From: Dissophora ornata
Lineage: Eukaryota; Mortierellomycota; Mortierellomycetes; Mortierellales; Mortierellaceae
DNA: 38,891 bases
Assembly: GCA_025201705.1 (NCBI GenBank)
Contig: MU616826.1
Coordinates: forward strand, 1-38,891
Direction of reading: 5' to 3'
The notes under the pieces are model-generated. The model saw only the letters and a program-made list of their open reading frames with translations, was not told the origin of the DNA and did no database searches. This document shows, piece after piece, positions 1,326-37,797 of this stretch. A program made the translations under genes and the position numbers. Numbering within the stretch: position 1 is the first letter of the stretch; each line of letters opens with the position of its first letter.

Positions 1326-4300
1326 TTACAACGCATTTGCGACCGCAACTGCGTAAGCACCAGAATGGCTAATCGAGACCTTGATCTCCTTGACGCCAGC
1401 CTTAGCAGCAGCCTCCTCAGCCGCGCCCGAGAACACCACCGATGGTGCTCCACTTTCTGCCATCACAATCTCAATCTCCTTCAGTCCTGCACCAGCACCC
1501 TGCGTCCAGACCTTCTCAGTTTCGAGCGAGAACGATGACACGGCCTTCACAACAGCTTCCTTTGCCGACCACCGTCCTGCGAAGCTGGACTGAGGGTCCG
1601 GTCGGCTCAAGCAATAGTCGATCTCCTTCTGTGTGAAGTTGCGCTCCAAGAACGTGTCGTTTTCGATGTTGATCGCTGAAACCATCTCGACATCAACACC
1701 CACACCACGAGAGGAAGTGGAGGATCCGCCTAGCGACTCAGCAGCAGAGGTCTCGAGGATTGCACGGGTCATGTCCACATCAACCTTATCTGACTCGGGT
1801 ACAAGAGACTTGGCGTTGAACGACCACGACTTTGTCGCCTTGTTGTACTGGGCACGTGCCTGAGGGTTGAGGTAGACGGGCGACTCGAGCTCGGGCGTGT
1901 ATGGGGGAGCGTTCTTGACCTGGACCAGAGCTGGGCCACCGGTCATCGAGTCGTGGAGGTAGCGGTACGACTTGGACTGACGCGATTGTTGCTTGACCTT
2001 GTAAGCCTCGTACTCGTGCTCCTCAAGGGCTCCGAGGATGTAATCAGAGTGGATCAAAAGGACCTCACCTCCGACCTGACCGAAACCGAACGACTTGAGC
2101 AAACCGGCCTTGACACCGTCCGTCTGGATCGAGCGAGAAGTGTAAAGGACATGCTCATACTGTCTCATGACGTCATCGATGTTGTCGGCATTGCGGTTGC
2201 CGGGGATCAAACCAGTCTGGAGGACCTGGAGGACACCGTTCATCATCCAGGCTGCAGCAGCACCCTTGGGGTGACCAGTGAGGTACTTCTGCCAAATCGT
2301 TGGCAACGCGTTACCCTTGCTACGGCCCAGGTGCTCCATCTGCTTGTTGACGACCTCGGACTCGTTCTTGTCGTTGGCCTTGGTTGAAGTACCGTGGAAG
2401 GATCCGACACCGATATCATCGATCGTCAAGCCGAATGAAGCAAGAGCACCGCGAAGAGGAGAAATCTGAGGATCCTGTCTGTAGAACTCGTTACCCCACA
2501 AGTTGAGAGCCTCACGATGTTGACGCTTGGCCTCCTTCTGAATGCGCTCCGTCTCGGAAGCGAGGTACTCTTCCTCGGTCACAGGCAAGGCATTGTTAGC
2601 CTTGAGCTCTTCAAGCTCGTAACGCAATTCGGTGTACTCGTTTTCAACCCACTGCTTGATCTGGGCACGGCGGGCATCGATCTGACGCTTGCGGTACTTG
2701 ATGTCCAAGAGGCGAGAAGGCATCTTGCCCTTGGCCTCGCGGGCAGTAGTCAGGACACCCTGACCAGGAGCAGGGACCGAGCGACCCTCCTTGTCCGTAG
2801 CAGTGTTGGTGAGACCGACAATACCATAAATTGGCACACCCATCTCGATGGCCAACTTGGCCTGCATCAAGATCTCGATACCAGCTCCGTGAGACTCCAT
2901 GAAACCAGAGCGAGTGGAAGTTGCGGGGCGAGACATTTCCTTGGGCGTGCGTCCATGGGCAAACTCCTCCTCGGTGTTGCTTGTCGCCTTCATGTTGGCG
3001 AACTCATACGAGCCTTCCTCCTGGAAATCATCGTAACCTCCGACAATAACAATCTTGGCCTTGCCACTCTGGATTGTGTCCACACCAATCTCGACAGACT
3101 CGACAGCAGTGGCGCAGGCTCCGACGGGGGTCTTGATGGGTCCGGAAGACGACAGGAGCAACATGTTGATCCAGGCAGGCATGGTGTTGATGAACGACTC
3201 CTGCAAGATATCCTTCTGGACAGGCTTGTCAAGCAGGCGGTCACGGTACATACCTCTGAGCGAGAGCATGCCTCCGACACCAGAACCGGCAGTGTTACCG
3301 ACTTCGGAGACGTGGACATACTGGTAGAACTCGTAAGGGTCGGTGATACCCGAAGCGATCAAGGCCTCGACAGTCGAGATCAAGACGTAGAGAGTGATGG
3401 TATCGACCTGGTCAATGATGTCCTTGGGAACACCATAGCGGGCAGCGTCCCATCCAGTAGGGATCTGACCAGCGACGAGGCGGTCAAACTTGAGCGCCTT
3501 GGGGATGTACATGTTGGCGCCCTTCTTGAACTTGACAGCCCACTGACCCGACTCCTCCTCATAAATGTCGACCTTGTCACCGTGCTCAAGCTTGAACATC
3601 TGAGCTTCCTCCTTCGAGACCTCGAAGGGCTCCATGTCGTGGTCAATCAAGACTTCCTGCATGAGACCCTTACGCTGGGGATCGTAGCCACCAAAGAGCT
3701 CGGGCTCGATCAGACGGATACCAGTGTGTTCCAAAATCTGCTTTTCGTACTTGGACTTGACATCCTTGTCCTTGACGGGCTCACCAGTCTTGGCGTCAAC
3801 CCATCCAGAATAAGGCGCACCAGACTTGAGAGGACCGTTGTGGTGCTTGATGAAGCCCATGATCCAAGCCATCTCGATGCATCCCTCGAGCGAGAACTGG
3901 CCGTTGGCCTCCATCTCCCAACGAGTACGAGAGTTACCCCATGGTCCAACTTCGCTGAAACCGGTGACGACGACCACCTTCTCAAGGTCGAGCATGCCAC
4001 GCAGCTTGTGGGCGTGAGACAGGTCCTTGTACTCCTTAAGCTCAGGGAAGGGGAACTTCATGTTGGCGCGAGGCGTGGCCTTGTGGGGCTGGTGCTTACG
4101 CTCCGCTTCGGCGCCGTGGGTCTCCTTGAAGTCCAAGGTGTTTTCGGTGACAATCGCCTTGCGAATCTCAGAAGTCTGGCGGTGTTCAGCACGCAAGTTA
4201 GCGCTAATCTCGTTCAGATTAGGCAAGTACTGGAGGCCACCGTTCAAGTCAGCCCAGACAGGCTCGATCTGGCACAGGCTAGTGATCGAAGGGTGCATGA

Positions 4301-7300
4301 GACCGAGAATGTTGAAGGCCATCTCCTGAGACGAGAAAGTGCGAACACCATACTTCTCGAGACCCTCAGCGACAATGTTATTGCCGCTCATCAATCCAGT
4401 TCCACGAGTCCAGCCGATAACAGCTCCAGTGATGGTCAAGTAGGCAGACCACGACTCAGATGTCCAGCGGTTGAACAGAGTCTCGAGAGCAACCTTGGAC
4501 TCACCATAGAGACCGTCAGCACCAAAGGTTCCGTGGTTAGGCGAGAGAGGCAAGATGACTTGAGCTGGGCGAGTGTCGTAGCCATTCTCCATCTTCTTGG
4601 TCTTCACGTTACCGAGGAGACGAAGGACGTTGGTCAACATGATACGATGAGCCAACTCAGACTGCGAGTCAATGTTGTCAATCTCCTTTCCTTGGACCGA
4701 GATGGCAGCGAAAGGAATAATGTAGTCGAGATCCCAGCCGAGACCCTTCTTGGGGTCCTTGTCATAGATGTAGTTGACCAAAGCGTCGACATCCTGCTTC
4801 GAACCTCCGTTGAAAGGAACAACAACCAATGAAGAGTTCTTGGAACCGTGACGCTGGTAAATCGACTGGTAGTACTCGGTGACATCACGACTGAAGCGCG
4901 AGGTAGTGACAACAACCTTGGCACCTCCAGAAAGGAGACCCTTGAGGATCGCGGCACCGATTGAGTCCTTGCCAGCACCCGTCATGAGGACCATGCGGTT
5001 CTCGTAGGTGATACCATCCTTGGCCATGTTGGTCAAAACATCAAGGTAAACGCTGGTCAAACGCTGGCTGAACTCCCATCCGCTCTCGGACTGGGGGTTC
5101 TTCTTCTTGAGGTGCAGGAAGGGAATGGTCTCCTTCTTGGCCTTCTTGGGGCGTTCAGCGTTGACATTGACCGAGGGACGGCGGGCGCGGCTAGCACGGC
5201 GAGACTTCTCCTCGCGGATGATGCTGTTGGACATGTTGATCGAGTGGATGACTTCACCGTAGAGAGACTTGATAGCCAGCTTGGATGACGATTTCATGTT
5301 CTGAGCTTTGATGATCTTGTAAATCTGAGCCAAGTTCTTTTGGACCTTCTGACGGTTGCTGTACTCGGACATCTTGCCACCAGCAGACATGTCCTTGACA
5401 TAGTGATCCAACTTGCGAACACCAACGCGCTGAACCTCCTCGTACAAGATGTTGCCCTTGTTGTCAATCGATGTCGAAGGACCAGTGGGGAGACCAACTA
5501 ACATTGACAAAAATAAGATCAAATAAAATTAAATACTGTTAACATGTGTCCACATTCACGCATCACCGCAAAAAAAAAATGCGGTGAGATTGTCCAAACT
5601 TACCATCCTTGTAGACGGGAGCGGTCTCAAGAACTTCACGACAGTTCTGGATCAACATGTTACCGAGCTCTTTGGCAAGAGCATAGGTCTTGCCGCGCTC
5701 GGCTGCGGTATTGTCAATGTGGTAGATCATGAACTCCAAAAGCTGGGGGTTGGCGCGGTTCATGACGTGAATGCACTGGGCGACAACCTCACGGTCAACA
5801 ACGGTGAGACGACCAAAGATCATGTCATAGAGCAGCGACATAGCATCCTGGCGAACCCAGTTCCAGTGAGAGTCGTACTTGCGAGCCTTCTTCACACTGA
5901 ACGCTGGCTTGATACCCTCAGCGTAATAGTCGCCGTGCTCAGCCATCCACTGATCGATGTCGGCCTGAAGACGAAGTGTAGCAAGCTTTTCCTCTTCGTA
6001 GAGCTTCTCGCCAGCACGGAGATCCTTCTCGAGGTAACGGGCATAGATCTCGAGGTGCTGGTACATCATTGCGTTTTGCTTGGCCTGGAACTGGTTGAAC
6101 TCCTCGCTGTTCATCATCGCACCACCAACAGCTCCTCCGGCAACGGCACCACCGCCGCCACCGCCAAGAGAGATACCGGCGCGACGAGCGTAAGCTTGAG
6201 CAACAGTATCCAACCAGGCCTTAGCCTCAGCTTCCGATCCGAGACGGGCAGCGGGTTCCATGGTAAGACCCAAAAGGAGAGCGCCATCAGCGCGAACAGA
6301 ACCCAATCCGTAGGCCGAGGCAAGGTAACCCTTAGCGGACGACTGAGTGAAACCGCCAGGCATCTTGGATCCAATCATCTTGGCAATCAGCGAGGTCGTC
6401 TGCTTGCCAAGAACGCCGTTGAAGTTGCCCTGGAGTGCGTTTCCAAGATCTTCCAAAGGAGCTTCCTCACCCTTCTCGGGGAACCCGCTACCGCCAAATT
6501 CCTTCTGAAGATCACCCAAGATCTCGTTCTGGAGAGTTGACTTGCCTCCGACGAGATCCTTGATCGCCTTCGAGAGAGGAACCTCGTCGACTGTCTTCTT
6601 GATCTTCTGAGCGACAATGACGTGGAGAATGTCGACAGCCTTGATAGGAGCATCGGCGATTGCGGCGGGAGCACCAGCACCAGCAGGAGCAGCAGCCATC
6701 ATGGCGGGAGCAGCGCCAGCAGGAGCGCCAGCGCCGAGAGTGACACCAGCGCGGCGGGCATAAGCTTGAGCGACGGAATCCAGCCAGGCGTTGGCCTCAG
6801 GGACGCCGTTAAGACGAGCTGCAGGCTCCATGGTCAAACCGACCAAAAGAGCAGCATCAGCACGAACAGGGCCCAAACCGTGGGTCTTGGTAAGGTAGCC
6901 CTTAGCGGTCGAGAGCGAGAAACCACCGGGCATCTTAGATCCGATCATCTTGGAGATCAAAGATGTGGTCTGCTTGCCAAGAGCGCCATTGAAGTTACCC
7001 TGGAGAGCATTAGCGAGCTCCTCCAAAGGAGCCTCTTCACCCTTCTCAGGGAAACCACTGCCACCAAACTCCTTCTGAAGATCACCCAAGATCTCGTTTT
7101 GGAGGGTAGACTTGCCTCCAACCAGATCCTTGATAGCCTTGGAGAGGGGAACTTCCTCCAACGACTTCTTGACCTTCTGGGCAACAATGACGTGCAAAAT
7201 CTCAACTGCCTTGATAGGAGCATCAGCAACTGCAGCTGCGGGACCAGCAGCGGCAGCGACAGGGGCAGGAGCGGCAACAGCAACTGGAGCAGCCCTGGCG

Positions 7301-10300
7301 GCAGGAGCGGCAGCGGCAGCAGGAGCAGGGGCCGACGACTCAACGTTGTCCATAGCGTAGTAAATCTCCTTGGCATCCTTGGATGTACAGAGAGTAGAAC
7401 GCTGGAAGGTCAGAGCATCATCATAAGCCTCATACTTGAACTTGAGAGTACGTTGGGCCATTCCGCAAAGAGTGGGCGAGGGTCCGACTTCGATCAAACG
7501 GACAACGTTGTACTCCTTGAATAGCCTGTCCTGAGTCTCAATCCAGCGGACAGGAGAGGCGAACTGGTAAGCGAGCAGCTCGACCAAAAGAGTGTAACCG
7601 AGGCGCTGCTGTTGCTTGGCAGTGAGCTTGTCATCAATCCAGTTCTTGAGGACCTTGCCGAGACGGGGCGAGGAGGTCAAGTTGTAGACGCCTTCAATGT
7701 ACGACTTCTCAATGCTGAAAGGCTGGGCAGTCAAGTTGGGAATATACTTGGCGGTCAACAGAGGAACATTGATGAAGGTAGGGTTAATCTTCTTGGCGAG
7801 GTAGGTGCGGAAAGGGGCGACACCGGAGAGCAAGAAGCTGGAGTGGAAAGGCACATCGATACCAGCCAAGGGGATAGTGGCAACACCGCGCTCGGGCTTA
7901 ACGATGCCCTCCTTCGCCAACTTCTCAGCGACCTTCTCAAGAGCACCAGCAATGATCTGGGACAGGTGCTTCTTGACCTCTTCAAGAGGCATGGTCTCCA
8001 TCAACTTTTGGAGATCGATCTTCTGGACCTTGATGTAGTTCAAGACAGTTGAGAGAGCATCGAGGTTGGTGAGCTCACCAGCAGCGACATACTGCCAGTT
8101 CTCAACGTTCTCGTTCACGATTTCCAAGAGTCCGTTCGACTGTCTAGCAATAGCATCGACGACATAGCGGAGAGCAGAGTCGTTGAATGTAGGCGAGACA
8201 CGCGAGGGGTTGATGGCAACCATTCCATAGTTGGAACGACCAGCCTCGTCACGGGGGACAGCAACCTGCATGGTCATACCACGGTAGAAGACGACATCGA
8301 CCAAAGACTCGATGGGAAGCACCTCGCCGATGGCGGCCAAGGCAGAGTATTCTCCGAGAGAGTGACCGGCAAAAGCGCAGTTGCCCTGGATCAATCCCTT
8401 GGAGCGCATATCCTCGAAGGCTGCCTTCTCCATCAAGGTCAAGGCAGGCTGGGTGAACTGAGTCGCAGCCAACAGACCGTTGGGGGACTGGAAGGTGTAA
8501 AAGTGGGTGGTCTCGTTGATGCCAGGGAACAAAGGCAAGGACTGAATGGATCCATCCTGGTTGACAAGATCGTAGCGCATCGACATGTAGTTCTGACGGA
8601 TGGCGTTACCCTTGGGACCACCAAAGTGGATCGTCTTCTTGTGAGGGTTGTTGCGGACAATATCCAAAATGGAGAAACCTACAAGTGCAAGACACTACAC
8701 GTCAGATTCCATGATGGGGATAACATCAACAGGCACATTAATAGAAGCGAGGCTTACCATAGTTCTCCAAAAAGTGGCGATCGGCTCTCTGCCAGATGTC
8801 CTTCGCAACGGGGGAAGAGTCGTAAAGAGCCATTCCCATTCCCTGCTCCTGCGATCCTTGGCCAGTGAAAACGTAAGCGATCGTGGGCTGGTCGATCTCA
8901 GCAGCACCCTCAACAACCTAGATATTTTGAAGGACACAATATCAGCACATTTGTAGCAGATTGTACGCCCTTTCGTGATGCGAAATAAAAATATATATTA
9001 CCTTGACGCCGTTTTGGTTGAAGGTCTCGACCTTGATGATCTTTTTACCGTTGATCATACCAATATGCGACAACTTGGTCGAAAGGCGGTCCTGAGGAAG
9101 AACCATAGACAAGAAGCTGACCTCGTAGCTATTCAAAATAGACAATATCGGGGTATGTTCAGTTAATCAAGCTTATATATACCAATCAACCTTGCAATCG
9201 TACCAGAACTTCACAGCCATGCATACCTTGTGACACGCTGAGGATGGTTATCTGCAGCGAAAATCTCAACAAACTTGCGGGTCGAGGCACTTGTCCACAT
9301 TCCGTGGGTAATGGTACCAGGGAGTTCAGCAAGATCAGCAAAGTAAGGGTTGACGTGAATAGGGTTGAAATCACCCGAAACCTTGGCATAGGGCTCGTTG
9401 CTGAAGGGCGAGATGACCTCTGAGCTGTAGGCTCCCTCGGGCATGACAGAGTAGCCTCCGTTCTCGAAGTGGATGGCTTGCTCAATGGGGCTACCATAGC
9501 GCTTCAAGTAACCGAGGACGGGATTACCGTGGGTCTCTTCGTCGTTGCTATAGTGGACCGTGGCAATCTCAACGTGCTCCTTGGTAGAGATCTGCATCGA
9601 GACGGTACCTGTGGTCTCCACATGGGAGAAGAGAGTCTTGTTCTTGAAGCGGAGGATGGTGTTCAGACGGAAGACCAACGAGGCGTTAGGGCCAACAGTG
9701 TGCTCACCCTCAGCCCATTGGATCCACTCCTTGCTCTTCAATACAGCAACGTCCTTGGCAGAGGTCAGCTTGACCTCCATGGGGAGCTCGACGATCTTCT
9801 GGAACGTGTTGTGGTAGTCCGTGAAGGTACCACGGTACAAGAACTCGGAAGTGACCTCCATGACGCGCTTGCCCTCACGCAAAACAACGCCCTTGACTTG
9901 AACAAGCTTTCCAGAATCGTTGTTAACAACCGCGTTGATCTCGGCAACAGTATCGACGATATCGCCCTGCTTCAATGACTCGGCACCATCGAGCATGCGG
10001 AAACCGTTCGAGAGATGAACGAGCTTCAAGAGGTCACCATCGATCGACTTGGGGAAAATAGCCTTGATGATCGACTTCCAACCAACGACGATGGCAAAGT
10101 CCATGGGAGCATAGACGACCTTCTGGCGACGCTCAACGTACAGTTCAGCTTGATTACCGACAGCTTGGCAGAATTCCTTGATTTCAGAAGTGTTGACCTG
10201 TTCATCGTTGCAGATAAACTTCTCGGTGAAGGCATCGGTAGCGAGGCAGGTGTTAAACTGGCCTTCCTCCGAAGGGAACCACAGCTTGTAGTAGAACTCT

Positions 10301-13300
10301 TTGATCCTCTCGTTGCGACCTTCCATGACTTCGTGGATGGGGGCGTAACCCTTCTCAGGAGTGTAGTGGAACAGGAGAGGGAAGGGGATCAAGCGATCAC
10401 CATTCTTCTCCACGAGGACGACTTCGACCAGATCGTTGGGTTGAAGGCGGGCGCGAAGGGAAGGCGACAAGTCGTCGGTCTTGTTGGAAGCCGACCACGA
10501 GCGACGATCATACACGGTGACGGTCTGGAGCTTTTCGTCGGTGTACTCAAAGTGAACGGCCTGAGAGACACGAGGACGGAAGATACGCGCAAGAGGGTTG
10601 TCCAAGAACTTCTTGCCCTGGATAACAGCAGGGGCTGTCAACAAGGCACGGAACCAGGAAGGATCGGCGCCAGCGAGGAACTCGAGCCAGTCCTCAGTTT
10701 GAGGCAAGCTTGACTCCGACATCGAGGTCTCGACCATCTTGACCTTGCCGTTCTCATAAAGATCGATCTTGACCAATGGAGAAATGGCGCTTGAGGCAGC
10801 ATTGAAGTGGACAGGCTTGCCACCGAAGTACTCGACCTGTGGGATGCTGGCGTCGTTGTTGCCGTAGTAACGCTCCTTGAGTGAGGCAATGTGGCTGTGG
10901 AAAATACCGTCCAGGATGTCCTTGACTGGCTCATCAACTTTGGTGGCATAACGAACAGCCGTTGGTCCCTGAAGAATACAGGTGCGCTGAACATCTTGGT
11001 CTACGACGGCGGCCAGGTCCTCAGCCTGCCAGAGCGAGTCCTTCTTGAACCAGACCTCGAAGTCCTTGTCGAGAACGGGAATGAATGGCACGGGCTTCTG
11101 ACCACGACGGTTCATCAAGAACAAGAGGTAGCCAACATCCTCAGTGGTCAAGAGCTGGGTCTTAGTCAATGGGTAAGTGTTGATGAACTCCTGAGAAAAC
11201 TCGAAAGGAATATCCAGCTGAGCATAGGTCTGGACAATCGACTCCTTCTCAACACCAACGAAGCGCTCCTCAATGCGGCGGAGGACGTCTCCCAAAAGGT
11301 TGCGGTGCGAGTAGTCAATCCAGCGTTCTTCGTGCTTGATGAACAAGAGCTCGATCATGCGGTTGATCACCTCCTCGTAGGTCATATCCTGGAGATCAGC
11401 AACACTGCCATCTGCCTTCTTACCGAACCAAACCTACAAAGCACAATAAAAAGCAAGCACGTTAATGGTCTGTCATAATAAAACAGCCCCATTTCATGCA
11501 CAAAGAGTAAGTCGATCATATTACCTTCTGGAAGTCGGCGTTCAAACGCTTGATAATGTAGTCCTTCTTGGCCAAAAGGGCAGCAGGGCGCTTATCCTTG
11601 GGAAGAGAAAAGATAGTGTCGTCCATCTCCTTCCAGAGGCGGACACCACGAGTAGCAATCTTGTGGATGGGCTCTCCCAACTCGGAGCGGACAGTCATGA
11701 CACCACCAGTGGGGCCCTTGTACGTCTTTTCCCATTCCGAATCATCGACTCCAGGGGCGTCGACAATAGCCTGCTTAACGCCGAGCGAGGCCATACCCTC
11801 CTTGGCAACCATCATACGGGAACCAAAGAGCATTCCATCGAATGGCATGGATGGGTAACCAAGCTGTACGGACCAGTCACCGGTGAGATAGGGGTAGGTA
11901 TCCTCAGCACCACCGAATCCAGATCCGGCAACCAAGACAACGTTGGGGTGGCGACGAATAGAGGAGTAAGTGTCCAGGATAGGCTGATGGAAATCCTCGA
12001 AACTGTGATGACCACCAGCACGTCCGCCAGTCCACTGGAGAATAATAGGCATCTCAGGGTGAGCAGCGGCGATGGCCAAAACCTGGCGAATAGACTCGGT
12101 TGAACCGGGCTTGAAAGAGACGTGACGAATTCCTGCACTGAACATATCCGTGATGAACTCGTCGGCGACCTCAAGCGAAGGAACACCGGCGGCACAGCAG
12201 AAACCTTCCATAGGGAGACCCTCGCGACGCAGCTTGGGAACCAAAGGAGCCTGGAAACCCCACTGGCGGACATTGATAAACAAAGTATTCAAGGTAACAC
12301 CAGCTCCAGGGGTGGTGAGATGCATGATCTTCTTGACCTTGCTGCGGATAGCGGCCTCGTTGTAGTGTCCACCTCCAGCCAACTCAACATGGTATCCTGC
12401 ATTCATGACAGCGCTGACAAAGCCCTCGTTGACAGTTGAAGGGGTCATACCAGCGACCATCAGTGGCGGCTTTGAGAGCAGACGGGACATGCGGGTGTCA
12501 ATGTGGACGTCTCCGTTCAACGAGCGCACCAGCTTTGGCTGGAACTCAGTGGCCCAGTTAGGAGCATAGCGAAGAGAAGCTGAGTTGGCGTCAAAGAGAT
12601 CAGATTTGTACGACAGCTCACGGTTGACGCCCTCAGAGGCACCCGCAAGGATGACCTGGACTCCAGTACCATCCTTGTTACGGGCAGTCAGAGAACCGAC
12701 TCCTGAGGAACCTCCGGGACCGAAATCAATAACATGAGTCAATCCGGTCATGACGGTAGCCTTCTCCCAATGGACGGGAAGGGATAAGATCTGGTGGACC
12801 AACTCCATAGTGACATTGGGCGATCCAGAAATGTCCTTTCCAGAGTCAGTGGCAAAGACAGGGACAGTCATGCGGGTGTGATCAAACTGCAGATCGTCAC
12901 GGATGATATCCTGCTCAATGATAGCGGCAGCACCATCCAAGTATGAGGAATGGAAGGGAGCAGTAATGGGCAAGAAGCGAGACGAGAATTTGATCTTTCG
13001 CTGCGAGAAAGGAACACGACCCTGCTCAAGGCCGGTAGGAGCTTTGAGCTTGCGAAGAGCCAAGTTCAAACCGTACAGCGACTGAGGAGGACCCGTGCAG
13101 ATGATCGAGCGAGGACCGTTGATCAGCGCAATCTTGATCTGGCGATCCTCAGGCAAGTGGCGGTTGGTAGCATCGACGTACTTGTAAACCTCAGATGCAC
13201 GGAGCGAGTTGACGACCAACATGGGGGTGGGGTTGCCTTCATTGTTGGAGAGCGAGTCCTGAAGAATAGCGGGGTTGAGGGTGGTTTGAGGGTAAACCTG

Positions 13301-15059
13301 CTGAGAGCGGGTTCCGATCCAGAAGAGCAGACCGAGCGCCTTACGCGAGTTGGAAAAGAACTCCTCCATTGTAGCCGACGCCGAGATGACGACGGATGAG
13401 ATGATGCCCTGGGAGTGTCCAGTTGATCCCAAAATAACATCCCGCACCTTGTCGGGGGTTTGGTCGAGAACCTATTTGTTACATGATAATGGTACGGCAA
13501 GATCAGTACATTTTATCCTCCCTCCTTCCGGCTATTTTTCACTCCGGGGTTTCTGCCATTGGTTTTTTTTTACCTTGAGCATCAAATAGTAGTGCATCAA
13601 CTGAATAAGTCCGATCAAGGGCAGGGAAACGGGGGCTGAAAGCAGATACGCAACATCTGGCTTCGAGTCCGGGTTCCTCAGCCAGCCCATGACATCGAGT
13701 CCCTTGGAGTGGAAGACGGAGGCGTCGTCGGATTTGGCTTGCTCGCGCAATAGTGCAGCCATTTCCTCAATGTAGTCTTGGACCAAGGTGGTATAGGTGG
13801 TGTAGATGTCGGCAAGCTCCTCAAAGTAGTCCTCGATGTTACCCTGACCGCCAAAGATGGCAAAGAGCTTGGCTTTACCCTCGTGTGCAGCTGCAAAGAG
13901 GGCAGAAGTAGGCTGTGTGTACTCGCCCGGCGCAAGTGCCTCCGAGGCGCGGAGGAAGACCAAGGCCGAGAAGAAGGCATTGATGATCTCGGCGCGGGTA
14001 TCCTTTGCCAAGAGTTGGGTGACCGCATGGATGTCGTTTCCTTTGAGGTATTTAGCGACGAAGAACAAGAAGACAGTCTTCAGCACAGGGATGAACTGCA
14101 GCGAAGGGTCGTTCTAACGGGGTTGGTGAACATGATTTATGTTAGCGTTAATCGTGGGAAACCTGGCAACACAAACAACTCCTTTTTACTTTGTCAGTAG
14201 ACAACAAGAACGTTAAAAATTAAATTTGCCCGCCTTTCATTTTTTTTTCCTTGTCGCACCCAAAAAAAAAAAAAAACGAATAAAGACTGAGACATCCACC
14301 TTCACTCCATTGCTCGAGTGCTCCTTGTACAAAAGTGCACACTATCTTTCCTCAGGAGTAGCAGTGGCTTTTCTGCACTCCTGCATTGATCCCTCCAATG
14401 TACCTATGCACACGAGCATTCATAATACTCTCTTCGCCTCTTATACTCTTGCCCCATCACTACCGCTGCAAGCAACCAACAACAAAAAACTCTGGGGACC
14501 TTCAATAATTTTGACAAAAGGGCCCAGATCAAAGAACATTTCAAGAATGAAATCCACTGTCCTGGCACTGAGCGGCTCTTCCTTGTTCTATCCCACAAGG
14601 CGTCGTCGAGACGCCATGTCGGTGTCTCCATGCCATCCCTTTCAAAAGCATGTATCTTATATGGCGCCCCAAAAACGTCCCCCCCTTCTTCTTCTTCCCG
14701 CCCATCAATTCATTAGGCTGTTCTAACCCCTCTTCCAACGAATCCAAAAATGCACCAAACAACAAACAAGTATGCACAATTGAAAGTGCTCTCTCTCTTT
14801 TCTTTACCTGCTCGCTCTTCTCAGTAGCAAACTTGAGGAAGCGGGCCACAAGCAACATCTCGGGGGCTTGATCTTCCGAAGCATCGGATGCAGCGGTGGC
14901 TGCGTCTTCAGCAGTGGGTGCAGCGGCATTGCTCGAGATCCTGAACTCTTCCCGGAGTTGTTCAGCAGCGACCCAGACATCCGAAGGAACAAGAATCGAG
15001 ACCTCGGATGTGGCCTGCTTGAGAGTCAATGGACGGGTCAAGTTCGATTGAATCGTCAT
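1326..15059 (-). CDS. FAS: Fused fungal type I fatty acid synthase (AT-ER-DH-MPT-ACP-ACP-KR-KS-PPT)
   Basis: Single-chain cytosolic synthase making long-chain acyl-CoA from acetyl- and malonyl-CoA with NADPH. My model has eight exons: 15059-14808, 14113-13574, 13471-11525, 11433-9227, 9128-9002, 8917-8758, 8678-5604 and 5497-1326. All introns are GT-AG, the phases agree, and the total is 12480 nt or 4159 aa. Visible domains: AT with GHSQG (Ser284) and APFHSS (His438); FMN enoyl reductase near 598 (VAGMTPS); dehydratase with GDFNPIH (Asp1601, His1606); malonyl/palmitoyl transferase GHSLGE (Ser1851) and His2023; two ACPs (Ser2268 and Ser2458 in GGKS); ketoreductase TGAGKDSIG at 2942 with Tyr3100 and Lys3104; ketosynthase Cys3564, His3804 and His3845; phosphopantetheinyl transferase GVGVDVE near 4034 and WSAKE near 4079. 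Yeast splits these activities between Fas1 and Fas2; here they are joined at the MPT-ACP boundary inside exon 7. All expected catalytic residues are present. Confidence 0.97.
6166..6657 (-). repeat. Second acyl carrier protein domain of FAS (tandem copy)
   Basis: Encodes residues about 2419-2582 of the synthase. It begins [17 protein letters not shown], carries the phosphopantetheine serine in LVGGKS (Ser2458), and ends [11 protein letters not shown]. It repeats the preceding domain at an exact spacing of 190 codons (570 bp). By hand count about 27 of 164 residues differ, i.e. roughly 84% identity. The stretch around the modified serine, from [10 protein letters not shown] on through GGSGFPEK, is identical in both copies. 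A glycine/alanine linker follows before the next domain. Confidence 0.93.
6736..7227 (-). repeat. First acyl carrier protein domain of FAS (tandem copy)
   Basis: Encodes residues about 2229-2393, beginning [17 protein letters not shown], with the phosphopantetheine serine at 2268 (LVGGKS). It sits behind an Ala/Pro-rich flexible linker (about residues 2192-2228) and is joined to the second ACP by another Ala/Pro/Gly-rich linker (about 2394-2418). Such linkers tether mobile carrier domains in fungal synthases. Both copies keep the serine and its surroundings, so both look functional. Confidence 0.93.
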
Positions 15060-30452: not shown

Positions 30453-30694
30453 CATTCGCTGGTGAACTTGCCCCTTATTGACCAAATCCTTTCACCGGTG
30501 CTGAGTCCATCAGTTAAACAAATTTTTTCACCGGTGAACAATCAAGTCAGATATCCAAATGCTTTCATTGATCAACTTCACCGGTGCTGAATCCAATTTT
30601 TTTCACCGGTGAACAATCCAGTCAGGTATCCAAATCCTTTCACCGACCAACTTCACCGGTGCCAGTTTTTTCACTGGTGAATTTCACCGGTGAA
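30453..30694. repeat. Degenerate tandem units built on the palindrome TTCACCGGTGAA
   Basis: The 12-base perfect palindrome TTCACCGGTGAA occurs at 30527-30538, 30602-30613 and 30683-30694. Half-changed forms (TTCACCGGTGCT, TTCACCGGTGCC, TTCACTGGTGAA, TTCGCTGGTGAA, TTCACCGACCAA) occur at 30491, 30577, 30652, 30670, 30453 and about 30639. They lie in larger direct units: TTCACCGGTGCTGA, a T-rich spacer, TTCACCGGTGAACAATC, AGTCAG-TATCCAAAT and CTTTCA recur with starts at 30491, 30577 and 30652 (86 and 75 bases apart). The palindromes are thus embedded in tandemly duplicated, diverging units. Confidence 0.9.
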
Positions 30695-31770: not shown

Positions 31771-34700
31771 ATGATAAGCAATATGGTATTGTCGTTGAGA
31801 AACGTTCTCGCGCCAGCGGCGGCTCTTGAGGTTGCCAAAGTGCATTTGAAGAACGCACGGGAAACAGAGAATTCAGAATTGGCTCTCACGTTTTGTGGCG
31901 AAGCGATAACCGCATTATCCCGCATAAGACGATCCGTGAGAAAGACTCTTGTTGCTTCTTCGTGCGCTGAGGATCGGAGCCTGCGCAATGAGATCGCTGC
32001 CACCTATCTTGAGTTTGGCAGACTGTTGGACAGATTGGAGAGTCGATCCAAGGCAAAGGCCTGTTATATGAATGTGGAAAAATGGGGGTAAGTAAATGAT
32101 ATCACGCTGACTGTCTGTATACGAGAGCAAAGGACAATACATGCATTCATCTGACTATACTACGATCCTACATAATTAATTTGTATTATGCTTTACAGCG
32201 GATCTGTTCAGGAGCCAAGTCAATCATCCTCTCGCCGAGTCGAAGTCGCATCGCTTCATGTTGCAGACCCTAATGCGGATACCGCCGCAAATATTGCTAT
32301 CAACCCCACTTCGAGTACCATTGCGGGTCCTGCTGATATTCCCACGTCGGCCCCTCCTCCACCCTCTACTCCCCCGCCTCCTTCTCTCCCTCTACTCCAG
32401 GACAGCCGAGCCCGCGACATTGCACTACTCCCTCCGAATATTTTTGCAAAGGACATGTATCAACCTCCTGACATAAACAATTTGCCAAGAGTTGAGGAGC
32501 GTCTCGAGAGCATATCTCAGCTGGTCCACTGTCTTGACCTTCTACAACCTTCGCAACCGCCCGACGACCCGCTCGACCAGACTGAGATCAATTGGCTAAA
32601 TGCTATAAAAGATGATCCAGACGAGCAGGAAAGACTGAAGATGCTGGTGACCAACTTGCTCCGAGAATTCGCCCGTGAGGAGATCAAGGATGCGAACGCT
32701 GTTGCAGAAATCGTGTGCCTGGTGCCAGTTCTCGAAAAAGACGATCTTCAGCAATTACTCCGGTTGTTTTCCCGTGGCATTGAGCAATCTAAATTGTTGG
32801 ACTCCAATCTAATCGAAGGATTGGCACAACTGGTGCAACGCGCTGTCCCAGGCCACCTCAACTCTGATGATCTGATCAAGATACTGGAACTCATCAGCAC
32901 GTGTTTACAAGACACTCACAAGCAATCGCAAAATTACATCTATCAGTTAACGCTCACGGTGTCGCACGTCTTGGATGCCATGGCCGATAGTAGCGTCAAG
33001 GGACTAGACCGCGAACGGCTCCATGCACCTCTTGCAGCCTATTTGCATGGTCTAGAGGGCAGCAGTGACCCATACTTAGTCTATCAAGCTGCTTATGCCT
33101 CACAAGCTTTACTATATGTCCCTGATAATGAAACGCCATGGCAAGCTACGGTGCGGCGCACAGGAAAAGTAGTCAAGGGTGTTTCAGGGCTAGTGAGCGC
33201 TGTAAAAGGCTTGGATCTTAACCGGTTTGTAGAAGGGTTGAGTCATATACAAGAAGGGCTGGCTGGAGCGTCAGAGGTCGTTACGCTGGCCAAAAACGCT
33301 TACAAAGACGCCAGCACACTGACCAAGAACGGAAAGCAGTTTCTGGACTGCCTCAAAGAGGGCTTCGCGGTCAGTCTCAAACGTGCGTGGTATCCAGCAT
33401 TACGTGGTGCAGATATCTTGCTTCGGAATGGCCATCTCATCGGGTTCAAGAGACTGGTCTGCGAAGCGCCATGCCGACGCGATCCTGTCTTTCAGTGGGG
33501 AGTATGTCAACGCCTCGGAGAGATCGCAGCCAATACAGAGTGCGATGACGACTCTCGAACAGGTTCTGTTGCGCTTCTAGGAGAGATGTATCAAAACGAT
33601 TCAGTCTGGGGCCAGGATGCCAACATAAAGCAATGGATCGTTGATATCCTTGTGCAACTGGCAGCTCCATCCGGAAGCGCTATGAAAGGTATGAGGGAGA
33701 GAAGGATGATGCAATGACACCATTGATGTCAATTGACACAGTAGCAAAATCTAACCAAACACCAACATGTACATGCTATAGCTGCCAACGCGCTGCTGCT
33801 GCAGTTAGAGAAGGATGGAGATGACAGAAAACAGGCACTTTACTGGTCTTACCGAGAGAAGGGTCCAAGCTCGCATCCCCTGGAGGTCATTCTATCGCTG
33901 CCGATGTCTCCGTCCCTGCTCGATCGCGTTCAGAACAAGGTCGACGTCGAGGCCACTTTGCGCCAGCTGAAAGAGCGACGATTACAAAGCGGGGGCGAAT
34001 TCGTGTATGTTTCCCCACAGGCGAAGGCTAATCTGACGGCTCGCGATGACACGCTGTTCCCTTTGATGGAGAAAGTGAAAGAGTTCCTGGGTAGCGAACA
34101 AAAGGTGTTTTTGCTGCTGGGAGACTCTGGCGCGGGGAAATCTACCTTTAGCCAGCAACTCGAGCGTGAGTTGTGGGAGAGCTACAAGAAGAAGGAAGGT
34201 CGGATCCCACTCTTCATCGCTCTCGCAGCAATCCAAACCCCTAAAGATGAACTCATCGCCAAACAACTAAAGAAGGAAGGGTTTACCGAGCATCAAATCC
34301 GAGAGATGAAGGTGTACCGCGAATTCATCTTGATTTGCGACGGGTATGACGAGAGTCGGCAGACACACAACTTGTACATGAGCAACCGACTGAACCAGCC
34401 AGGGGAGTGGCATGCACAAATGGTGATCAGCTGTCGCAGCGAGTACCTTGGCATCGATTATCGGGATCGCTTCCAACTGGTAGACCGTAATCACCAAGTG
34501 GCTTTGACCCTGTTTCAAGAAGCGGTTATTGCACCGTTCTCGAAGGATCAGATTGAAGACTACGTCAATCAATTCACGTCATTGAAAGGATCGCTATGGC
34601 AGGCCGCTGATTACTTGCAGGCTCTTGATCGAATTCCCAACATGAAAGACCTGGTGACGAACCCATTCCTGTTAACTTTGTCATTGGATGTGTTGCCGGG

Positions 34701-37700
34701 CATGGTAGATCCAGGACAAACCCTCTCGGCAACCCGAATCACAAGAGTCGCACTGTATGACCAGTTCGTGGAGCAGTGGCTGGAGCGCGGTAAAAAACGA
34801 TTAGTGGAGAAGGTGAGCGACAATGAGAGAGCGGCATTTGAGAGCTTGTACGACGAAGGATTCGCGGAGAAAGGCATTTCATTCTTAAAACGGTTGGCGA
34901 CAGCGATCTTTGATAATCAAGCGGGTAATTCGGTGGTCGAGTATTCGTCTGCTCGGGATCGAGGGACGTGGAAGGAGGCCTTCTTTAATCAAGACGCTGA
35001 GAAGAAACTTTTGCGTGAGGCTTGTCCTCTGAACCGCATCGGCAATCAATACCGGTTTTTCCATCGATCATTATTGGAATACAGTTTGGCGCGAGCAGTA
35101 TTTGAACCGCAGAAGGGACGAAAAGATGGACAAAGTATGATAGAATCGACGACCACTGCTTTACGTCGAGGGAGCACCAGTTCTTCTTACAGTTTCGAGA
35201 GTCAAGGGGCTTTGGAGGAAGTGCAAGTCGCCGTAGAACAGCCGGTGGTCGAGTCGCCTTTAGGACGGAAGAGCTTTGTAGGCGAGCCGTCGATTATACG
35301 ATTCTTAGTGGAGCGTGTACAACAAGAAGCTCTCTTCAAAAAACAGCTGCTGGCAGTCATTGAGCGATCGAGAACAGAACAGAAGGAGCTCGAGGCTGTA
35401 CGCAAGGCGGCGGCCAATGCGATCACAATATTGGTCAGAGCAGGAGTTCAATTTAATGGAGCGGATTTGAGAGGGATCCAAATTCCTGGAGCAGATTTAA
35501 GTCATGGTGTATTCGATTGCGCTCAGCTGCAAGGCGCGGATATGAGAAAGGTCGCTCTTCGCAGTGCATGGCTGCGTGGAGCAGATTTGAGCAACGCACA
35601 GATGGCAGGAGTGCAGTTTGGCGAACTGCCTTTTCTCCAAGGAGATAGCAATATCGAATTCTGCGTATATTCACCAAATAGGGAAACATTCACAACCAGT
35701 CTCGCCGAAGGCGAAATCAGTATCTTTACAACATCGAACTGGGAAAAAGTGTGGATGTTGCGCGGCCACAGCAAGCGTATTTGGAGCGTTGCGTATTCGC
35801 CACAAGGTGATCAGATTGCATCTGGCAGTGAGGATACTACAGTGCGACTTTGGGACATTGAAACTGGAGAATGTCGCCACATCTTGAGTGGCCACGGCAT
35901 GGGAGTCCAGATCATCGCGTATTCGCCAAGAGGTGATCAGATTGCATCTGGCAGCAAAGATAATACAGTGCGGCTGTGGAACCTTGAAACCGGAGAATGT
36001 CGCCACACCTTGAGCGGCCATAGCAACTGGGTTCGGAGCATCGCGTATTCAGCAAAAGGCGATGAGATTGCATCTGGCAGTGATGACTTCACAGTGCGGC
36101 TGTGGGACGTTGAAACCGGGGATTGCCACTACACCTTGAGCGGCCACAGCGACAAGGTTCACAGAGTCGTGTATTCGCCAAGAGGCGGTCAGGTTGCGTC
36201 TAGCAGTTGGGACAACACAGTGCGGCTGTGGAACATTGAAACCGGAGAATGCCGCCATACCTTGAGCGACCGCAGATGCATGGTTATGATAATCGCGTAT
36301 TCGCCAAAAGGCGATCAGATTGCGTCTATAAGTTCGGAAGAGACAGTGCGGTTGTGGGACGTTGAAACCGGAGAATGTCGCCACATCTTGAGCGGTCATA
36401 ATGGCATTGTTTCGAGCATCGCATATTCGCCGAAAGATAGTCAGATTGCGTCTGCCAGTCGGGACAAGACAGTGCGGCTGTGGGACACCGAAACCGGCGA
36501 TTGTCACCACACCTTGAGCGGCTATAGCGACTGTATTATGTACATCACATATTCGCCGAGAGGAGATCAGATTGCGTCTATCGGTGAGGACAATACAGTG
36601 TGGCTGCGGGACATTCAGACAGGAGATTACCGCTCCACCTTGAGTGGCCATGGCAAAAGTGTTTGGAGCATCGCATATTCTCCAAAAGATGATCAGATTG
36701 CTTCTGGCAGTGAAGATAATACTGTGCGGCTGTGGGACGTTGAAACTGGAGATTGCCACCACACCTTGAGCGGCTATGACATCGGGCCTCCGGGTATCGC
36801 GTATTCACCAAGTGGTGGTCAGATTGCGTCCGTTAGTTGGAACAATACAGTACAGTTGTGGGACGTTGAAACCGGAGAATGTCGCCACACCTTGATCGGC
36901 CATACTGACAATGTTATGAGCGTCGCGTATTCTCCAAAAGTCGATCAGATTGCGTCTGGCAGTTCTGACAATACAGTGCGCTTGTGGGACATTGAAACCG
37001 GAGAATGCCGCCACACCTTGATAGGCCATGTTTACACTGTCAAGAGCGTTGCGTATTCGCCAAAAGGTGATCAGATTGCATCCGGCAGTTATGACAAAAC
37101 AGTGCGGCTGTGGGACACTGAATCCGGAGAATGTCGCCACACCTTGAGCGGCCATTACAGCGGGGTCCTGATCATCGCGTATTCGCCCAGAGGTAGTCAG
37201 ATTGCGTCTGGCAGTTGGGACTATACAGTGCGGCTATGGGATGTTGAGACCGGAGAATGCCACCACACCTTGAGCGGCCATTATGGCAAGGTTACCACCA
37301 TCAAGTATTCGCCAAAAGGCGATCAGATTGCGTCTAGCAGTGAGGACAAGTCAGTGTTGCTGTGGGACCTTGAAACCGGAGAATGTCGCTACACCCTGAG
37401 TGGCCATAGCAACTTTGTTCAAAGCATCGCGTATTCGCCAAAGGGTGATCAGATTGCGTCTAGTAGTGATGACTGCGAAGTGCGGTTGTGGGATGTCACA
37501 TCTGGTCAATGTCGAGTCGTGATACAAAATTATGCCAAAGCTAGAAGCGTCGCCTGGAGATCAGTCCCAAATGGCTATTATTTAGTAGTTGGTTGTGAAG
37601 ACGGATCAGTGTTGCAGTGGCAGGTGATAGTAACGGGGAATGAGTACTGCGTACGCTTGCGCTGGAGATCTTTGCCGAATGCGCTTATATTGACGGATAC

Positions 37701-37797
37701 ATCTATACCAGATGTGCGAGGACTAAGTCGGCTGAATAAGCTGCTCTTAAAGCAGCGCGGAGCCATATTTAATGACATAAAAAACAAGTCCAATTAA
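31771..37797 (+). CDS. NLR-like NACHT protein with pentapeptide and WD40 repeats
   Basis: Model of 1940 aa in three exons: 31771-32087, 32199-33688 and 33782-37797, GT-AG introns in phase. Residues 1-105 are helical; a Pro-rich linker lies near 140-165; helical repeat-like sequence runs to about 650. NACHT-type NTPase: Walker A GDSGAGKST (716-724), Walker B FILICDGYDE (Asp789, Asp792, Glu793), sensor-like MVISCRSEY, and NACHT-distal FFHRSLLEYSLAR. Pentapeptide A(D/N)LxG-like repeats span about 1157-1217 (GADLRG, GADLSH, GADMRK, GADLSN). Then come 14 regular 42-residue WD40 repeats (about 1264-1851) with a degenerate repeat at each end, and a short tail. Fungal proteins of this build act as intracellular STAND receptors, some in nonself recognition. 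The ligand and output are unknown. An upstream coding exon before 31771 is possible but not seen. Confidence 0.88.
35443..35625 (+). repeat. Pentapeptide-repeat segment of the NLR-like gene
   Basis: Encodes about 60 residues of A(D/N)LxX-type repeats (FNGADLRGIQIPGADLSHG, then LQGADMRK and LRGADLSNAQMAG). Such repeats fold as a right-handed quadrilateral beta helix. It is in frame with the flanking NTPase and WD40 parts, so it is a domain rather than an insertion that breaks the gene. Confidence 0.85.
35764..37527 (+). repeat. Fourteen 126-bp tandem repeats encoding WD40 blades
   Basis: Starting at the GGC of the first full GH (35764) the sequence repeats every 126 bases without a single length change for 14 units, the last starting at 37402. 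The consensus blade is (x)VxxIAYSPKGDQIASGSxD, then xTVRLWDxETGECRHTLSGH. Nucleotide conservation between units is high and extends to silent positions, implying recent duplication or gene conversion. Diverged blades precede and follow the array, so the array has probably expanded from inside an older propeller. Confidence 0.95.

What the first reader, a model, noticed from the sequence alone, without database searches (positions are those of the whole stretch)
35764..37527. Variation in the WD40 array is focused on a few positions per blade
All 14 blades are exactly 42 residues and share AYSPxxDQIAS and TVRLWDxETGECRHTLSGH. Differences concentrate in two short windows: the residues just after GH (SKRIWS, GMGVQI, SNWVRS, NGIVSS, VYTVKS and so on) and the pair around the invariant Asp (SEDTT, SKDNT, SWDYT, SYDKT, SRDKT). 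In ascomycete HNWD genes the same kind of pattern, conserved frame plus hypervariable surface sites and concerted evolution, builds variable recognition surfaces. Here it implies a rapidly evolving ligand-binding face.
Basis: partly seen in the sequence, partly recalled or inferred. Interest (0 to 1): 0.8.

Follow-up and report, generated by a model that had tools for sequence, protein, structure and literature searches.

The report
Fungal receptor with fast-changing binding face
A fungal gene of the immune-receptor type carries 14 similar propeller blades in which selection appears to keep changing about five residues per blade, four of them at the positions known from self/non-self recognition genes of a distantly related mould, while the rest stays largely fixed.

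Summary
Window 35770-37533 encodes 14 WD40 units of exactly 42 residues, the C-terminus of a predicted 1,940-residue ARM-NACHT-pentapeptide-WD40 (NLR-like) protein. Replacements cluster (variance 10.96 against at most 5.15 in 10,000 random draws). In 305 intact blades from 31 genes of this genome the most variable sites are 3, 5, 21 and 23, then 2. Counted from the residue after GH, the four match codons 7, 9, 25 and 27 of Podospora HNWD genes (register inferred). With one synonymous rate, exactly sites 2, 3, 5, 21 and 23 exceed omega 1. With site-specific rates 2, 3 and 5 stay significant; 23 and 21 do not. Conserved codons 4 and 22, between variable ones, show ordinary synonymous change, against local hypermutation. 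AlphaFold2 gives two propellers matching eight-bladed ones. Blade order is not clearly shared between paralogues. Internal identity is 62%, below HNWD. The family and its sharing with endobacteria are in print; I found no report of the site-specific selection. No strains could be compared. Ligand unknown.

The parts
31771..32087 (+). exon 1 of the predicted gene (start codon at 31771)
   Evidence: best-scoring of 48 open splice combinations against five full-length homologues; intron 32088-32198 is GTAAGT...TTACAG
32199..33688 (+). exon 2; carries the ARM_5 domain (PF23948), about 32596-33669
   Evidence: PF23948 E 2.9e-73; intron 33689-33781 is GTATGA...CTATAG; the runner-up model (3492 against 3507 bits) puts this intron at 33652-33744
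33782..37797 (+). exon 3; NACHT, pentapeptide-like stretch and WD40 array; whole protein 1,940 residues
34105..34581 (+). NACHT nucleotide-binding domain (P-loop LLLGDSGAGKSTF)
   Evidence: PF05729 over its cut-off, 40.6 bits
35449..35619 (+). pentapeptide-like stretch (GADLRGIQIPGADLSHG...) before the propellers
   Evidence: read from the sequence; PF00805 is precomputed for many homologues listed; it is not among the 25 of 57 Pfam hits shown
35644..35769 (+). divergent blade 0, N-terminal blade of propeller 1
   Evidence: sequence; four strands in the model
35770..37533 (+). 14 WD40 units of 42 residues; site 1 is the residue after GH
35773..35784 (+). example, blade 1: variable codons 2, 3 and 5 (d-a loop), with conserved codon 4; they recur every 126 bases
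35830..35838 (+). example, blade 1: variable codons 21 and 23 around conserved Asp22 (b-c turn); they recur every 126 bases
37534..37674 (+). divergent blade 15, C-terminal blade of propeller 2
   Evidence: sequence; strands in the model
35623..36621 (+). predicted propeller 1 (model residues 22-354)
36640..37626 (+). predicted propeller 2 (model residues 361-689)

Best explanation
The array is the sensor end of an intracellular NLR-like (STAND) protein from a Mortierellomycota-type fungus. Its 14 canonical and two divergent blades fold into two eight-bladed propellers. Residues 2, 3 and 5 (d-a loop) and 21 and 23 (b-c turn) of each blade stand on the top face and form a combinatorial contact surface. 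Purifying selection holds the frame; diversifying selection keeps replacing the contact residues; gain, loss and exchange of whole blades among about 70 paralogues reshuffles them. Shown here: the pattern, the excess replacement change, its restriction to a few codons, the weak or absent blade collinearity, and a confident model of each propeller. Inferred: top-face placing (from sequence rules), that the face binds variable non-self ligands (competing or endosymbiotic bacteria, viruses or other fungal strains), and that binding makes the NACHT domain oligomerise and the N-terminal ARM domain signal.
For: Close blade pairs: pN over global pS is 2.5-3.3 at sites 3, 5, 21, 23 (7 pairs) and 2.1-2.6 (1,679 pairs), against about 0.2 at 31 frame sites. 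Single-base codon differences at the four sites: 2,116 replacement to 208 synonymous, neutral expectation 3.42 to 1, omega 2.98, bootstrap over genes 1.87-4.99. One-rate FEL (alpha fixed at the median of the site estimates): only sites 2, 3, 5, 21 and 23 exceed 1, p 2.4e-7 to 2.8e-38. In 38 disjoint pairs matched on the frame, residues differ at 84% of the four sites against 10% of the frame. With matching on half of the frame and the neutral rate taken from the unused half, 59% and 67% of these codons differ by two or more bases in the best 40 pairs of each split, 14% and 20% expected. Codons 4 and 22 have ordinary synonymous change. NACHT dN/dS averages 0.19. Both predicted propellers superpose on eight-bladed ones. 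In 60 blades of four endobacterial relatives the most variable sites are 3, 5, 21, 40, 23 and 2.
Against: Two-rate FEL does not support site 21 (omega 0.65, p 0.11) or, firmly, site 23 (p 0.13, 0.058). In disjoint pairs the excess over neutrality at the four sites is modest: 38:5 (p 0.067), 80:13 (p 0.038), 126:24 (p 0.032) for 38, 79 and 129 nested pairs. The single-base measure taken site by site is noisy: site 5 alone has a bootstrap of 0.66-7.2, and sites 9, 34 and 8 also exceed 1; sites 1, 8 and 36 exceed 1 in some. The tree methods assume no exchange between blades. No ligand, phenotype or expression evidence exists. The assembly is in 968 pieces with runs of N, and short-read assemblies of such arrays can be wrong (PMC12222747). 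No second strain was available. The model's pTM is 0.52, so the mutual placing of the propellers is unsure.
Confidence: 0.75

Rival explanations
1. Relaxed constraint: these are merely the most exposed positions of any WD40 blade and drift without selection for change.
For: Three of the positions (R1-2, R1, D-1) are variable contact sites in WD40 proteins generally (PMC3419727 passages), and highly repetitive WD40 proteins are reported to vary there (PMC5587647 passages). In disjoint pairs the excess over neutral is modest (p 0.067 to 0.032), and two-rate FEL gives omega below 1 at site 21.
Against: Drift cannot exceed the neutral rate. Omega is about 3 with a gene bootstrap of 1.87-4.99; one-rate FEL p-values are 2.4e-7 or lower. 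In the best 40 pairs of each split, first and second codon bases at the four sites diverge by 0.60 and 0.65 where unmatched four-fold sites diverge by 0.23 and 0.28. Site 2 shows 48 replacement to 2 synonymous single-base differences, p 0.00045.
Confidence: 0.12
2. Targeted mutation, or short conversion tracts, rewrites the loop codons regardless of the protein.
For: Local synonymous divergence at sites 3, 5, 21 and 23 is above that of frame sites in close pairs (0.34 against 0.18), and many of these codons differ at several bases. Codon 4 is at the top of the range for valine (0.25 against 0.18-0.23; 0.32 and 0.37 against 0.25-0.33).
Against: Apart from that slight excess, conserved codons 4 and 22, flanked by variable ones, diverge like the same residues elsewhere: over all pairs Val4 0.34 against 0.30-0.33, Asp22 0.32 against 0.13-0.47. 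Changes hit all three codon positions about equally (779, 835, 710), unlike adenine-directed retroelement mutagenesis (recalled).
Confidence: 0.06
3. The face diversified for a housekeeping scaffold role, each paralogue binding a different cellular partner, rather than for non-self recognition.
For: WD40 proteins are general scaffolds, and the ligand is unknown. Contact-residue combinations are almost all different (292 of 305).
Against: The eight own genes placed in the tree are one lineage-specific clade, the arrays differ by whole blades (about 12 to 15 canonical blades in 14 genes), and closest paralogues share little blade order. That turnover fits recognition of changing targets better than fixed partners.
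Confidence: 0.2

Closest known systems
Podospora anserina HNWD/NWD genes (het-d, het-e, het-r)
   Same: NACHT plus C-terminal WD40 units of 42 residues; diversifying selection at the same four blade positions (codons 7, 9, 25, 27 there; 3, 5, 21, 23 here, register inferred); predicted double propeller; part of a multigene family
   Different: No HET domain found (ARM_5 instead); internal identity 62% rather than 80-100%; 14 canonical plus two divergent blades predicted as 8+8 rather than 11 plus 3 as 7+7; site 2 also selected; incompatibility function untested
Mortierellomycota NACHT-pentapeptide-WD40 receptors and their Mycoavidus/Glomeribacter homologues (PMC11291939; helical N-terminus noted in PMC9815663)
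   Same: Same domain order; homologues at 46-58% identity in named Mortierellaceae and endobacteria among the best 120 of 7,982 hits; the window gene belongs here
   Different: The passages read describe domain content and gene transfer, not site-specific selection, blade turnover or propeller number
Highly repetitive WD40 proteins (PMC5587647)
   Same: Conserved units with variability at predicted contact sites
   Different: The window array falls in the moderately repetitive class (0.62 against the cut-off of 0.7), although six paralogues exceed 0.7; no dN/dS work was seen in the passages read

Membership tests
HNWD family (Podospora type) | N-terminal HET domain | tested here: not met
   The N-terminal exon (window 32188-33714) matches ARM_5 only at E 0.001 or better; gene model
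HNWD family (Podospora type) | NACHT domain | tested here: met
   PF05729 at 34105-34581, 40.6 bits, over the cut-off of 26.7; the model also rings in 11 of 14 control genomes, over the cut-off in 3
HNWD family (Podospora type) | WD40 units over 80% identical within the gene | tested here: not met
   Mean 61.8% of residues in the window array; highest paralogue 76.3%
HNWD family (Podospora type) | Diversifying selection at the four top-face codons | tested here: met
   One-rate FEL: all four, plus site 2; pooled single-base omega 2.98, bootstrap 1.87-4.99. Two-rate FEL: sites 3 and 5 significant, 23 p 0.13/0.058, 21 not
HNWD family (Podospora type) | Concerted evolution of units within and between genes | tested here: inconclusive
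   Between-gene blade dS below NACHT dS in 248 of 276 pairs, with codon-usage difference as a partial cause; nearest blade in the same gene in 8.2% against 3.3% by permutation
HNWD family (Podospora type) | Repeat-number polymorphism between strains; incompatibility phenotype | not testable with these tools
   One genome only
Mortierellomycota NACHT-pentapeptide-WD40 receptors | ARM-like helical N-terminus, NACHT, pentapeptide and WD40 in one protein, in Mortierellomycota or their endobacteria | tested here: met
Highly repetitive WD40 proteins | Internal identity of at least 0.7 | tested here: not met
   0.618; cut-offs from passages of PMC5587647

The most novel reading that the evidence does not exclude
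Fungus and endosymbiont draw on one horizontally shared receptor pool: both partners carry this NLR-like architecture and diversify the same five top-face residues, so the two-sided repertoire takes part in controlling the symbiosis, convergently with ascomycete allorecognition.
Probability: 0.2. Interest if true: 0.85.

Novelty: new variant of a known kind. Interest (0 to 1): 0.55.

Why it matters
If the NLRs of early-diverging fungi came from bacteria independently of those of Dikarya, as PMC11291939 proposes, then selection on the same four blade positions in both is convergence: the WD40 top face would be a general, evolvable recognition surface, comparable to the LRR face in plants. It also suggests that near-identical repeats are not needed for such diversification, since these units are only 62% alike. 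The set of about 70 paralogues in one genome, with homologues in fungal endobacteria, makes recognition between fungus and bacterium directly testable.

Tried and rejected
Two-rate FEL was first run with a badly started optimiser, so those values were discarded; the corrected runs are kappa 2.0; kappa 2.6. Searches (wrong Python; empty list) failed and were rerun.

A higher-order three-blade unit (TRF period 378) was checked by lag: mean distance in the window array is 0.24-0.29 at every lag from 1 to 11, with no dip at 3, so it was dropped.

In one search I took the neutral rate for frame-matched pairs from the very codons used for matching, which gave 5% expected multi-base codons; that is biased low. 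One search repeats it with unmatched codons (14% and 20% expected in the best 40 pairs), and the report uses that. The high third-base divergence of Ser1 (20 of 39) is partly the same bias: over all pairs it is 0.44, other serine codons 0.27-0.48.

Comparing four-fold sites of blades and NACHT gave 255 of 330 pairs lower in blades (330 of 351 pairs had enough sites), but codon usage alone lowers the blade ceiling (0.655 against 0.726). I rely on dS and still call concerted evolution inconclusive.

Adenine-directed diversity-generating retroelements were considered and rejected on codon-position counts; I did not search for a reverse transcriptase.

The scan of genome contigs with the NACHT half found no relative. 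With an alignment of four endobacterial proteins it found 17 loci of other bacteria and no Mycoavidus or Glomeribacter. So endobacterial blades were looked at as protein only, and the selection test there is undone. In one of the four proteins (P0005) sites 8, 40 and 36 vary as much as 3, 5 and 21, so that protein alone does not show the pattern cleanly.

The species could not be named: the fatty-acid-synthase search gave an unnamed 87% hit as best.

Rows dropped: 7 of the 38 loci then held overlapped others; 18 blade hits with indels, stops or Ns were dropped. NACHT comparisons used 27 of 31 genes; one search used the 276 pairs of 24 genes with at least five intact blades. The tree holds 30 rows; P0046, own_L003 and out_L041 gave no usable stretch. 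Blade counts could be read for 14 of 23 genes.

Full report
WHAT IS THERE. The window is contig C265 (38,891 bases) of a 31.4 Mb genome in 968 contigs. The ORF at 33904-37797 lies in the third exon of a predicted gene with exons 31771-32087, 32199-33688 and 33782-37797, which gives 1,940 residues. It is the best-scoring of 48 open splice combinations against five full-length homologues; the runner-up shifts the second intron. The domains are ARM_5, NACHT at 34105-34581, a pentapeptide-like stretch near 35449-35619 (read from the sequence), and WD40 units. The array holds 14 units of exactly 42 residues at 35770-37533, with a divergent blade on each side.

IS THE PATTERN REAL? Yes. The 150 replacements against the consensus are far more clustered than chance (variance 10.96; null mean 2.59, maximum 5.15 in 10,000 draws). 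The genome has many paralogues: the NACHT half gave 76 matching stretches, 73 of 103 candidates scored. From 31 of these genes I took 305 intact blades and dropped 18 hits with indels, stops or Ns. Entropy peaks at sites 3, 5, 21 and 23, then 2.

SAME SITES AS HNWD. In Podospora, codons 7, 9, 25 and 27 of the unit are under positive selection, each pair flanking a conserved codon (8, 26), in the d-a loop and the b-c turn (PMC1805685, passages). Laid on the unit printed in PMC12222747 (passages), these are my sites 3, 5, 21 and 23, with conserved 4 and 22; the start of their numbering is my inference from spacing and loops. By the V-R1-R2-V rule of PMC3419727 (abstract, introduction and passages), sites 3, 5 and 21 are R1-2, R1 and D-1, the general top-face contact residues.

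SELECTION. (a) Close pairs: pN over the global pS is 2.5-3.3 at the four sites in the 7 closest pairs and 2.1-2.6 in 1,679 pairs, against about 0.2 at 31 frame sites; sites 1 and 36 also exceed 1, site 8 at two of three thresholds. (b) Single-base codon differences: 2,116 replacement to 208 synonymous at the four sites (neutral 3.42 to 1; omega 2.98, gene bootstrap 1.87-4.99); sites 1 and 2 together 0.8; the rest 0.31. These pairs share blades, so only the bootstrap is to be trusted. Site by site it is noisy: site 5 alone spans 0.66-7.2, and sites 9, 34 and 8 also exceed 1. (c) My own FEL code on a FastTree of 305 blades: with the synonymous rate fixed at the median of the site estimates, sites 2, 3, 5, 21 and 23 alone exceed 1 (omega 1.62, 2.65, 3.12, 3.06, 1.54). 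With site-specific synonymous rates, sites 2, 3 and 5 stay significant (p 0.00023, 1.3e-7, 0.00023 at kappa 2.6), site 23 has p 0.13 (kappa 2.0) or 0.058 (kappa 2.6), sites 12 and 34 are above 1 without significance, and site 21 drops to 0.65. (d) Disjoint pairs matched on the frame: at frame distance 0.10 or less (38 pairs), residues differ at 84% of the four sites and 10% of the frame. Replacement to synonymous single-base differences are 38:5, 80:13 and 126:24 for 38, 79 and 129 nested pairs (p 0.067, 0.038, 0.032 against neutrality); site 2 gives 48:2, p 0.00045. (e) Matching on half of the frame and reading the neutral rate from the other half: in the best 40 pairs of each split, 95 and 107 of 160 codons at the four sites differ by two or more bases, 14% and 20% expected; their first and second bases diverge by 0.60 and 0.65 where unmatched four-fold sites diverge by 0.23 and 0.28. 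(f) The NACHT part has mean dN/dS 0.19. In the window array alone, over 91 pairs, single-base differences at the four sites are 88 replacement to 14 synonymous, against 539 to 597 at the frame.

NOT LOCAL MUTATION. Val4 and Asp22 sit between variable codons. Over all pairs their third bases differ by 0.34 (other valines 0.30-0.33) and 0.32 (other aspartates 0.13-0.47); in matched pairs Val4 is at or just above the top of its range. Hypermutation of the loop, or conversion tracts through it, should have raised them clearly. All three codon positions of the variable codons change.

BLADE TURNOVER. Among the 15 closest NACHT pairs compared (0.10-0.15 nucleotide divergence), the in-register blade distance lies within 17% of the mean over all blade pairs; the best of up to 13 offsets falls up to about 28% below it, so remnants of shared order are possible. 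Of 280 blades whose nearest relative is in another gene, 31 have it at the same index, 23 expected. In 14 of 23 genes where it could be read, 634 to 762 residues lie between the pentapeptide end and the stop, about 12 to 15 canonical blades. Blade-frame dS between genes is below NACHT dS in 248 of 276 pairs (medians 0.70 and 1.03), which suggests exchange between genes. Codon usage explains part of it, and only 8.2% of blades have their nearest relative in their own gene, so I leave concerted evolution open.

RELATIVES. Among the best 120 of 7,982 hits, the named ones are Mortierellaceae (Mortierella, Benniella, Dissophora, Gryganskiella, Modicella, Entomortierella, Haplosporangium) and the endobacteria Glomeribacter and Mycoavidus. 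In a NACHT tree of 30 rows the eight own genes included form one clade (100/99), and one Glomeribacter protein groups with Dissophora ornata (98/89), away from two other endobacterial ones. That Mortierellomycota NLRs of NACHT-PPR-WD40 type are shared with Mycoavidus is published (PMC11291939, passages; PMC9815663, passages). In 60 blades of four endobacterial proteins the most variable sites are 3, 5, 21, 40, 23 and 2; three of the four show it singly, P0005 less cleanly.

WHAT IS NEW. Five literature searches, seen as listings and, for some papers, passages, showed no report of site-specific selection or blade turnover in Mortierellomycota NLRs. The library holds open-licence papers only, so absence there is weak. 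The mechanism class is known; the variant differs by low internal identity, 8+8 blades, an ARM N-terminus and the fifth site.

HOW IT LIKELY WORKS. Shown: frame conserved, contact residues diversified above neutrality, blades gained, lost or moved. Inferred: the top faces bind variable ligands, the NACHT switches and oligomerises, and the ARM part passes the signal. Whether the ligand is microbial, viral or allelic is unknown.

Noticed in passing
G000: C357, C245, C629, C405, C459, C154, C622, C539, C273, C379, C420, C189 (two), C30, C428: Fifteen places match the Pfam NACHT model far better (E 4.8e-24 to 6.9e-20) than the window's family does, and do not appear in the search with the window's NACHT half: perhaps a second, separate NACHT family in this genome.
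   Followed up: no
G000: C73, C85, C111, C487, C170, C714, C694, C35, C80, C357: Ten of the 76 NACHT-half matches contain one to three in-frame stops, so some paralogues may be pseudogenes; assembly errors or missed introns are not excluded.
   Followed up: no
P0076 and P0014: A Glomeribacter NACHT groups with that of Dissophora ornata (98/89), apart from two other endobacterial proteins: more than one transfer between fungi and endobacteria, or contamination of one assembly.
   Followed up: partly
36049-36762, minus strand: A 237-residue ORF runs antisense through the WD40 array (others at 35671-36021 and 36805-37155): probably a by-product of the periodic codon use, not a gene.
   Followed up: no
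30482-30662: A short tandem repeat of about 37/75 bases (CACCGGTGAACAATC...) lies about 1.1 kb upstream of the predicted gene.
   Followed up: no
1326-14086, minus strand: A fungal fatty acid synthase locus in several exons; the 723-residue piece has an unnamed relative at 87% identity as its best match.
   Followed up: partly
L003, L004, L015, L016, L019, L025 against L020, L024, L035: Paralogous arrays fall into very diverse ones (within-array blade dS above 1) and much more homogeneous ones (dS about 0.2), so blade turnover or homogenisation differs strongly between genes.
   Followed up: partly
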